Origin: Olegusella massiliensis
GTDB lineage: Bacteria > Actinomycetota > Coriobacteriia > Coriobacteriales > Atopobiaceae
Length of the DNA: 64,000 nt
Direction: 5' to 3'
Assembly: GCF_900078545.1 (NCBI RefSeq)
Contig: NZ_FLLS01000002.1
Span: 1 to 64,000 of the forward strand
This document shows positions 1-1,670 of the stretch, piece after piece. The notes below the pieces were generated by a model. The model searched no databases. It saw only the letters and a program-made list of their open reading frames with translations, and was not told where the DNA came from. The first letter of the stretch is position 1. Every line of letters starts with the position of its first letter. The position numbers and the translations under genes were made by a program.

Positions 1-2
1 TA

Positions 3-19
3 ATATGAGAGAAGCATTG
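3..19 (+). repeat. Subterminal inverted repeat, transposase-distal end
   Basis: Sequence ATATGAGAGAAGCATTG, an exact reverse complement of 1580-1596. Only two bases of the window lie outside it, so neither the outer end of the element nor the flanking chromosome can be seen here. Confidence 0.9.
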
Positions 20-355
20 TCAAGTGGCATGACGTAGCAGGTCCTAAAGTTTCCTTGGGACCTGCTACTACTTTCAACCGGGGATGGTCTGTACTGAGCA
101 TTCCTTAGTCGGCGCTTGCTTGGCAAGCTAATATTCGCGGGCTTTGATTTGTGCTCCTGTTGGTTATGAGATCCAACAGCTGGTAAGAGCACGGTACCGC
201 AGTTCGATTCTTCGTCTGGGATCTTCATTGCGAATATCAGTCTTTAATGGCGGACGCGGCCCTTATGGGCTGTCCAAAAAAGGTCTCGTGAGCAGATCCC
301 AGCACTGCGTCGATGCACAGGCATCCCTGGCAAAAGTCTTATGAAGGGTAGGCCC
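20..355 (-). ncRNA. Putative IS1111 guide (bridge/seek) RNA region
   Basis: No gene fits this 336-nt stretch, but it is full of nested complementarity. Seen: an 11-bp perfect stem 34-44/58-68; a hairpin 157-163/173-179 extended by 151-156/187-192; an 8-bp pairing 130-137/230-237; an 8-bp pairing 216-223/295-302 that encloses a two-step hairpin 252-255/272-275 and 259-262/267-270. Known: IS1111-group elements encode their recombinase guide RNA in the non-coding segment after the transposase, on the same strand. Inferred: this region is that RNA. The exact 5' and 3' ends and the guide loops cannot be fixed without aligning related copies and their empty sites. Confidence 0.55.
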
Positions 356-1468
356 CTATCTTTCTTGATAGGTTCCTTCCACTCGCCGTCCTATCTCCCA
401 GACCCAGCAGGCAAGCTCGCGGGCGACCGCGACATTGGCGATACAGCGGTTGTGCGTGGCTTTCGAGAGTTGGGCATGCCTTTGAGTAAGACGTTTAGTG
501 CAGACATTGCCTCGTAAGCGTATGGAGGTGGGTACGCACCATTCGTCAGGAATCTGCTTGGGCTTTGCCGAACAGCTTGCGAAATGCCAAGCGCTCTCAA
601 CGAGGATGCGCCTGGAAGCGTTGTTTCCTGTCTTGGTAATGTGTCCTGTTGATTCTTTTTCTCCTGATGAGTGCTCGGAAGGAATGAGTCCACACCAGCT
701 GGCATACTCTTCAGCAGATCCAAACCTGGAGAAGAGTCCGGCCTCTGCAGCAAGGCAAAAGGCACTCACCTCGTCTATTCCTTTGATAGTCGAAAGTGCT
801 CTTACCGTTGGTGCCCACCTGTCTGTCCTTGCTTCTGTCTTTACGGCCTTTTCTAGAGATCTCTTGTCAGTCTCGGCGCATCTTACGCAGGTCACATAGT
901 GGACAAAGGTCACCCTAGCGGGGCCTGTGAAGGTCATGGACTCAAGCCATTTTCTGTGATCTCTTGTCCAGGCGCTCTTCCTCTGGTTAAGCGCATTCTT
1001 TTCATCGAAGACATAACCTCTTCTCAACAGGAATTTCGAGAGCCTCTGGCGTGCTCTTTGCAGGTCGATTCTTGCATCGTCTAGGGCTCTTGAGAGGTCA
1101 CGGACCGCCTCGATTTCTTCTGTGGGGATGAAGACCTCGACGATGTTGTGGCAAGCAAGCATGCGGGCAAGAAATGCAGCATCGCGCTTGTCATTCTTGC
1201 GTCTCTTGTCAGCTGAAGGCTTTTGCATCTTGGATACGGCAGCAACGCTGCAATCAACGCCGAGCGCCTTGAGCTCACGTGCCAGATGCCATCCGGTTGG
1301 TCCCGACTCATAGACGCACTTGGGACTTTCGAACTGCTTAGCCCATTTAGCTATTGGCTCGGCTTGTGCTGGAAACTCTGCTTGCGTTATCTCTCCTGTA
1401 AAGGGATTAAAAGCAGCAGCCGAGATTGAGCGGGCATGGACATCAAGGCCAATGGAGGTAACATACAT
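356..1468 (-). CDS. IS110-family RNA-guided transposase (DEDD recombinase)
   Basis: A 370-residue recombinase that would cut and join element ends and target DNA. Seen: the N-terminal RuvC-like DEDD residues fall at D9 (GLDVH), E54 (YESGPTGW), D93 and D96 (KNDKRDA). A C-terminal transposase_20 domain spans about 222-305 and contains P-x4-SSG and KTGNNASRR, where the family's serine nucleophile lies. No frameshift or stop interrupts it, so it may be active. The longest frame begins at 1513, but ATG at 1468 is preceded by AAGGGGG with 8-nt spacing, and GLDVH then sits at the usual distance from the N-terminus. The ribosome-binding site lies inside a potential stem with 1570-1580. Confidence 0.9.
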   Translation of the reverse strand: MYVTSIGLDVHARSISAAAFNPFTGEITQAEFPAQAEPIAKWAKQFESPKCVYESGPTGWHLARELKALGVDCSVAAVSKMQKPSADKRRKNDKRDAAFLARMLACHNIVEVFIPTEEIEAVRDLSRALDDARIDLQRARQRLSKFLLRRGYVFDEKNALNQRKSAWTRDHRKWLESMTFTGPARVTFVHYVTCVRCAETDKRSLEKAVKTEARTDRWAPTVRALSTIKGIDEVSAFCLAAEAGLFSRFGSAEEYASWCGLIPSEHSSGEKESTGHITKTGNNASRRILVESAWHFASCSAKPKQIPDEWCVPTSIRLRGNVCTKRLTQRHAQLSKATHNRCIANVAVARELACWVWEIGRRVEGTYQER

Positions 1469-1472
1469 AAGA

Positions 1473-1580
1473 GAAGCCCCCTTCCATGTGTGCGGTATGA
1501 GATTGCCGCACAAGCCAATATATCTAGCTCACATTGTGGCAGTCCTCTAGCCCGCGAGATGACATGAGCAAGGGGGCTTC
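1473..1580 (-). promoter_or_regulatory. Inverted repeat able to sequester the transposase RBS
   Basis: The 11 bases at 1473-1483, which contain the transposase ribosome-binding site on the minus strand (1477-1483), are the exact reverse complement of 1570-1580, next to the terminal repeat. A transcript entering from outside would contain both arms and could hide the site. One starting inside 1484-1569 would contain only the RBS arm. This resembles the protection against read-through described for other IS families; its use here is inference. Confidence 0.5.
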
Positions 1581-1596
1581 AATGCTTCTCTCATAT
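1580..1596 (-). repeat. Subterminal inverted repeat, transposase-proximal end
   Basis: Exact 17-bp reverse complement of 3-19. Chromosomal sequence leading to the rpoD terminator starts within a few bases beyond 1596. Confidence 0.9.
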
Positions 1597-1630
1597 CGTC
1601 TTAAAAAAGTCCAGTTTGATTACAGCTGTT

Positions 1631-1670
1631 ATAAAGAGCAAATCAGCCTAGCAGGATTGCTAGGCTGATT
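1631..1670 (-). terminator. Intrinsic terminator of the rpoD operon
   Basis: A perfect 13-bp stem (1641-1653 with 1658-1670) and GGAT loop lie 22 bp past the rpoD stop. In the minus-strand transcript it is followed by TGCTCTTTATAA, a modest U tract. The position at the end of a long operon supports the call. Confidence 0.7.

What the first reader, a model, noticed from the sequence alone, without database searches (positions are those of the whole stretch)
1..1596. IS1111-type element with a structured RNA tail: candidate natural RNA-guided recombinase
Seen: DEDD transposase D9/E54/D93/D96, perfect 17-bp subterminal repeats, and 336 nt of dense nested stems between the transposase stop and the distal repeat. 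Known: IS110/IS1111 recombinases are guided by an RNA from the non-coding end, and IS1111 members keep it downstream. The reading frame is intact. A 6-base string TCGTCT occurs both in the RNA region (212-217) and at the element junction (1596-1601), which could be a donor guide but is short enough to be chance.
Basis: partly seen in the sequence, partly recalled or inferred. Interest (0 to 1): 0.7.

Follow-up and report, generated by a model that had tools for sequence, protein, structure and literature searches.

The report
RNA-guided transposon aiming at terminators
This is a small bacterial jumping gene that appears to carry its own two-part guide RNA, which steers it to the harmless spot just behind transcription terminators, very often those of tRNA genes, a kind of address not previously reported, as far as I could find, for this family of RNA-guided transposons.

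Summary
Window 1-1602 is an intact IS1111-type element: DEDD transposase, perfect 17-bp sTIR and a structured 336-nt tail (fold z -4.66). An identical second copy lies at the other contig end. Across 31 relatives in Coriobacteriales the tail has a strongly covarying core, window 196-313(-): 93% of cells paired against 73% in shuffles, and compensatory changes in 13 of 18 pairs. The core is a closing stem, a hairpin, and two hypervariable segments between them. Those segments behave as guides. Across independent insertions, segment 1 matches the right flank (permutation p about 3e-5, the floor) and segment 2 the left junction (p about 2e-5, the floor). Their order and strands follow the published IS1111 seekRNA rule. 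New here: the clade inserts at the A-tract/stem boundary of intrinsic terminators. A strict hairpin test passes in 24 of 45 insertions against 8.6% of control windows. Fifteen of 46 lie just behind a tRNA gene, all in one orientation, including both copies in this genome. Verdict: a known kind (IS1111/seekRNA) with an apparently undescribed target class. RNA expression and transposition are inferred. Whether the hairpin itself is recognised is open.

The parts
1..1602 (-). IS1111-family element as far as visible (right end cut by the contig start)
   Evidence: Identical second copy at G000:C2 end; identity runs to 1602
356..1468 (-). DEDD transposase, 370 aa, D9/E54/D93/D96, GLIPSEHSSG
   Evidence: weak sequence matches to IS621 8wt6 and ISCro4 9t56
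1580..1596 (-). left subterminal inverted repeat (tnp side)
   Evidence: perfect 17 bp; present in relatives
3..19 (-). right subterminal inverted repeat (tail side)
   Evidence: perfect 17 bp
1597..1602 (-). left terminal extension AAGACG
   Evidence: shared by both genome copies; AGACG nearly always present in relatives
1..2 (-). right terminal extension TA (further base, if any, missing)
   Evidence: TA follows the repeat in nearly all relatives
196..313 (-). predicted seekRNA core
   Evidence: covariation in 31 sequences
294..302 (-). closing stem P1, 5' arm
   Evidence: 8 of 9 pairs with changes on both sides
216..224 (-). closing stem P1, 3' arm
251..276 (-). hairpin P2 between the two guides
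277..285 (-). guide 1 (RNA 5'-GACCUUUUU), complementary to the top strand of the right flank: A-tract plus first stem bases
   Evidence: permutation p about 3e-5 over 47 insertions, 28 guides
239..248 (-). guide 2 (RNA AUUAAAGACU), same sequence as the left flank/AAGACG junction, so it would pair with the bottom strand
   Evidence: permutation p about 2e-5 over 41 insertions, 22 guides
34..68 (-). RE-end hairpin; in several relatives followed by a T-run, i.e. terminator-like end of the transcript; no T-run here
18..23 (-). TTGACA, -35-like box pointing out over the right end, TTGAC kept in the relatives aligned; candidate junction promoter
   Evidence: no convincing -10 partner found
1603..1640 (-). 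left flank (target) between the element and the rpoD terminator
   Evidence: uninterrupted site in same-genus G031

Best explanation
An active-looking member of the IS1111 family that moves as a circle, using its DEDD transposase with an RNA cut from the 3' tail (seekRNA). One RNA segment pairs with the top strand of the right half of the site (A-tract and first stem bases), the other with the bottom strand of the left half and the element's left end. In this Coriobacteriales clade guide 1 mostly reads A-tract followed by G or C, a string supplied mostly by the U-tract/stem junction of intrinsic terminators. The element therefore lands just behind terminators in one orientation, leaving the hairpin and its T-tract next to it intact: a safe site. 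Shown here: ends, structure, guide-to-junction matches, site class, empty sites. Inferred from tested relatives: RNA processing, transposase binding, circle formation, RNA-directed insertion.
For: Ends, repeats and transposase as in the family. RNA covariation: 93.2% paired against 72.6% shuffled, 13 of 18 pairs with compensatory changes, and register-slid controls fall to 25-45%. Guide 1 against right flank 5.43 vs 4.31 matches (p about 3e-5, the permutation floor), e.g. L010 TAAAAGAGGCC 11 of 11. Guide 2 against left junction 2.54 vs 1.23 (p about 2e-5, floor); positions -3 to -5, which vary between copies of one element, are each significant. Terminators: 24/45 pass a strict hairpin test against 8.6% of control windows; 7/11 in Collinsella G164 against 6/45 AAAAAGS sites (p 0.0015). 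Fifteen of 46 insertions lie 35-115 nt from a tRNA gene, all facing the element, including tRNA-Asn and tRNA-Pro in the window's genome. Empty sites with the A-tract uninterrupted. The sister clade (~46% identity) shows no hairpin preference (1/15 in the lowest 5%).
Against: No expression, RNA-binding or transposition data for any clade member. Guide 1 fits the window copy's own site only partly (TAGAAAAGAAC against AAAAAGGTC), and that flank is joined across a contig break. About half the insertions fail the strict hairpin test; some are plain A-rich sites. Permutation tests do not fully remove relatedness of elements. Restricting the G164 background to intergenic AAAAAGS sites leaves 7/11 vs 3/9, p 0.18, so purging of harmful insertions may add to the terminator bias.
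Confidence: 0.85

Rival explanations
1. A refinement of the same mechanism: the element is RNA-guided, but the terminator bias comes partly from survival. Guides merely match common A-rich strings, and only insertions in non-coding gaps such as terminators persist.
For: Intergenic AAAAAGS sites in G164 already have hairpins in 3/9; 7/11 is not significantly more. Exceptions such as L071 and L070 sit at A-rich sites without hairpins.
Against: The guides themselves encode the A-tract/GC boundary. The shared orientation of all 15 neighbouring tRNA genes is explained by the target sequence, not by survival alone.
Confidence: 0.45
2. A refinement in the other direction: the transposase or RNA also reads the hairpin itself (DNA cruciform or single-stranded stem-loop at replication or transcription), the guides fixing only position and orientation.
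For: Stem sequences are very diverse while the hairpin is kept. Other IS1111 members sit at structured sites (attC, REP: PMC11187229; Coxiella stem-loops: PMC2104537). Group IIC introns use terminator motifs (PMC4424553).
Against: Insertions without a hairpin exist; no significant excess over intergenic AAAAAGS sites.
Confidence: 0.25
3. Protein-directed insertion: the tail is a structured leader or processing signal, and guide/site matches are coincidence or inherited.
For: No RNA data for this clade.
Against: Guide-junction matches beat permutations at the floor p at both ends, and the insertions are at independent sites.
Confidence: 0.04

Closest known systems
IS1111-family elements with seekRNA (ISEc11, ISKpn4, ISPa11, ISPst6)
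   Same: DEDD transposase, sTIR, downstream NCR, top-strand complement 5' of bottom-strand match, short left and right extensions, no added bases (PMC11187229)
   Different: 17-bp sTIR and 6-bp left extension; larger transposase (370 aa against 330-350); target is a class of sequence-diverse intrinsic terminators rather than one conserved sequence or repeat
IS110/IS621 bridge-RNA recombinases
   Same: Related transposase domains, dual guide loops (PMC11208160)
   Different: IS110 group has the RNA upstream, minimal STIR, and the reversed guide order
Group IIC introns
   Same: RNA-containing elements inserting at intrinsic terminators and attC sites (PMC4424553)
   Different: Retroelements with a ribozyme and reverse transcriptase; unrelated mechanism
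IS1111 of Coxiella burnetii and ISPa11
   Same: Stem-loop/REP targets (PMC2104537, PMC11187229)
   Different: Targets are a repeated, sequence-conserved family, not diverse terminators

Membership tests
IS1111 family (seekRNA elements) | DEDD (RuvC-like) transposase with PF02371 C-terminus and GL-P----S(t)G motif | tested here: met
IS1111 family (seekRNA elements) | Perfect or near-perfect subterminal inverted repeats with short asymmetric extensions | tested here: met
   17 bp, AAGACG / TA; 6-bp left extension, which the paper reports as occasional; right extension truncated by the contig end
IS1111 family (seekRNA elements) | Long non-coding region downstream of tnp | tested here: met
   336 nt, 20-355; downstream in the relatives
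IS1111 family (seekRNA elements) | RNA of 70-100 nt with top-strand complement 5' of bottom-strand match | tested here: met
   by sequence only: covarying core with matching segments in that order; RNA length in cells not known
IS1111 family (seekRNA elements) | RNA co-purifies with the transposase and is needed for movement | not testable with these tools
   needs experiment
IS1111 family (seekRNA elements) | Circular intermediate with junction promoter | tested here: inconclusive
   TTGAC(A) box kept at the right end, no convincing -10 in the RE-LE junction
IS1111 family (seekRNA elements) | Insertion without added target bases, fixed orientation | tested here: met
   empty sites in Collinsella relatives and G031, within ambiguity of the A-run; orientation constant
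IS110 group (bridge RNA upstream) | Guide RNA in the left, upstream end; sTIR absent or 2-3 bp | tested here: not met
   RNA downstream, 17-bp sTIR

The most novel reading that the evidence does not exclude
A clade of RNA-guided recombinases that recognises intrinsic terminators as a structural class: guides fix the A-tract/stem boundary, and hairpin shape (not stem sequence) is a required part of the target, giving a general safe-harbour address.
Probability: 0.22. Interest if true: 0.75.

Novelty: new variant of a known kind. Interest (0 to 1): 0.58.

Why it matters
IS1111/IS110 elements are being developed for programmable DNA insertion. Here natural variation gives about 28 distinct guide 1 and 22 distinct guide 2 variants with their sites, a ready data set for learning which guide positions matter. 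The target class suggests how such an element can spread without harm: it lands behind terminators, above all of tRNA genes, and leaves the hairpin and its T-tract in place. It also parallels group IIC introns, which use terminators and attC sites, as IS1111 members now appear to do.

Tried and rejected
Rfam gathering scan: no match anywhere in the window, so nothing reached threshold for any family in that library. TCGTCT as donor guide: rejected, not conserved in the tail. First guide-1 test with mixed registers was weak when A positions were excluded (p 0.09); re-anchored at the P2 hairpin and with more insertions it became strong. First guide-2 run picked the wrong AGACC in the G164 group; corrected. 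Folding energy alone separates terminators poorly in GC-rich hosts, hence the explicit stem test. Junction promoter: no clear -10. Plasmid records hold only relatives below 60% identity. No paper in the held open library was found that describes IS110/IS1111 elements aimed at terminators; subscription journals and preprints were not searched.

Full report
Observation. Window 1-1602 (-) is a near-complete insertion sequence. The transposase (CDS 356-1468, 370 aa) carries D9, E54, D93, D96 and GLIPSEHSSG, conserved in nearly all of 26 aligned relatives, and matches PF01548 and PF02371. The 17-bp inverted repeats are perfect. The tail 20-355 (-) is 336 nt and folds far better than shuffles (z -4.66). 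Rfam has no match.

Genome context. The window starts at base 1 of contig C2, inside the element's right end. C2 ends in a second, inverted copy, identical over the shared 1602 bases. The small contig C1 (50.8 kb) has at both ends an A-tract followed by a hairpin and then a tRNA gene, Asn-GTT and Pro-GGG, pointing at the break. C1 is therefore most simply the segment between the two copies (inference). In same-genus genome G031 a continuous match runs from the last bases of the window copy's left flank into the C1 start (query 210-443), giving the uninterrupted site CTTTAAAGAAAAGAACCCGTGCGA...TCGAACGGGTTCTC. So the window copy most likely lies between rpoD and the tRNA-Asn terminator.

Relatives. 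Protein searches in genomes found the clade with the ATATGAG repeat and roughly 47-75% transposase identity; in the searches run it was seen only in the order of the host, Coriobacteriales by the record titles. In nearly all of them the left extension ends AGACG and the right repeat is followed by TA. A sister clade (~46% identity, GATATG repeat) uses other sites.

RNA. Thirty-one tails align over window 196-313(-). The structure is a 9-bp closing stem P1 and a hairpin P2, with two single-stranded segments between them. It has 93.2% paired cells (shuffles 72.6 +/- 1.3), 99 double-changed cells (shuffles 31.5), 13 of 18 pairs with compensatory changes, and register-slid controls drop to 25-45%. 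RNAalifold predicts the same helices without being given them. P1 covaries, e.g. CUGGGAUCU/AGAUCCCAG here, CCGGCGCGA/UCGCGCCGG in L010.

Guides. Segment 1 lies 5' of P2. Its reverse complement matches the right flank in a fixed register set by the hairpin: 5.43 of 9 positions, against 4.31 +/- 0.20 when guides are permuted (28 guides, 47 insertions, p about 3e-5, the floor), with positions 6 and 7 strongest. L010 matches 11 of 11, TAAAAGAGGCC. Segment 2 lies 3' of P2 and equals the left junction: at positions -2 to -5 before GAC, 2.54 against 1.23 +/- 0.20 (22 guides, 41 insertions, p about 2e-5, floor). Positions -3, -4 and -5, which differ between copies of the same element and so belong to the site, are each significant. 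This is the order published for IS1111 seekRNAs, top-strand complement first and bottom-strand match second (PMC11187229). TCGTCT at 212-217 overlaps the foot of P1, varies in relatives, and does not track the junction.

Target class. Right flanks typically read TA + A-tract + GC-rich hairpin, i.e. an intrinsic terminator read on the opposite strand. A strict stem test passes in 24 of 45 insertions against 8.6% of windows further downstream (binomial about 1e-14). In Collinsella G164, eleven copies all have TAAAAA followed by G or AG; 7 of 11 pass against 6 of 45 AAAAAGS sites sampled in 400 kb (p 0.0015), but against intergenic AAAAAGS sites only (3 of 9) the difference is not significant (p 0.18). 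tRNA genes lie 35-115 nt beyond the right end in 13 of 44 loci plus both copies here, all facing the element; chance per site is about 0.0005-0.0015. Two insertions in different species (L015, L111) are beside what I read as the SRP (4.5S) RNA gene from its sequence (not run against a model). Relatives of L010's host carry the site uninterrupted; no extra bases are seen, within the ambiguity of the A-run. The sister clade shows no such bias.

Mechanism. Shown: anatomy, structure, guide-junction matching, site class. Inferred from tested IS1111 members: RNA processing, transposase-RNA complex, circle, RNA-directed insertion. Because the target's A-tract stays on the right-hand side, the terminator keeps its T-tract, so insertion should be nearly neutral (inference). 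Whether the hairpin is itself recognised, or the terminator bias follows from guide sequence plus survival, cannot be decided here. The first two rivals listed are refinements of the best explanation and not exclusive of it.

Known or new. Membership in IS1111 is met on the anatomical features tested. IS1111 members at structured sites are known (attC, REP, Coxiella stem-loops: PMC11187229, PMC2104537), and group IIC introns use terminators (PMC4424553). I found no report of IS110/IS1111 elements aimed at intrinsic terminators in the held literature, which is incomplete. I rate it a new variant of a known kind.

Noticed in passing
window 1 and G000:C2 end; G000:C1: The assembly breaks at two inverted identical copies flanking a 50.8-kb segment; recombination between them could invert that segment.
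   Followed up: partly
L077, L087, L048, L095: Relatives in genomes of different families share an in-frame TAG in the transposase; L077 and L087 also share nearly the same flanks (one inherited or mobile-element-borne insertion), and L048 and L077 share the left flank.
   Followed up: no
L031-L039, L049-L053, L089-L092: Sister clade with 10-bp GATATGTAGA-type repeats, CTAGAC left ends and AGTC/AGC right flanks, up to 6 copies per genome, targeting different, seemingly genic sites.
   Followed up: partly
L007 and L008 left flanks: Two Collinsella ihumii copies at different loci share about 40 bp of left flank (GGATGGGTTGAAACGAACCCGTCCCCAAACAACCC), a dispersed repeat next to the terminators.
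   Followed up: no
window 34-68: The element's own right-end hairpin has a T-run in several relatives (own terminator) but not here, and is replaced by a different hairpin in Collinsella L010/L013/L014.
   Followed up: no
L111, L112: Two G164 copies carry a changed guide 2 (CCTCAAGACT instead of CCACGAGACT) yet sit at GAGACG junctions, a possible case of guide drift after insertion.
   Followed up: no
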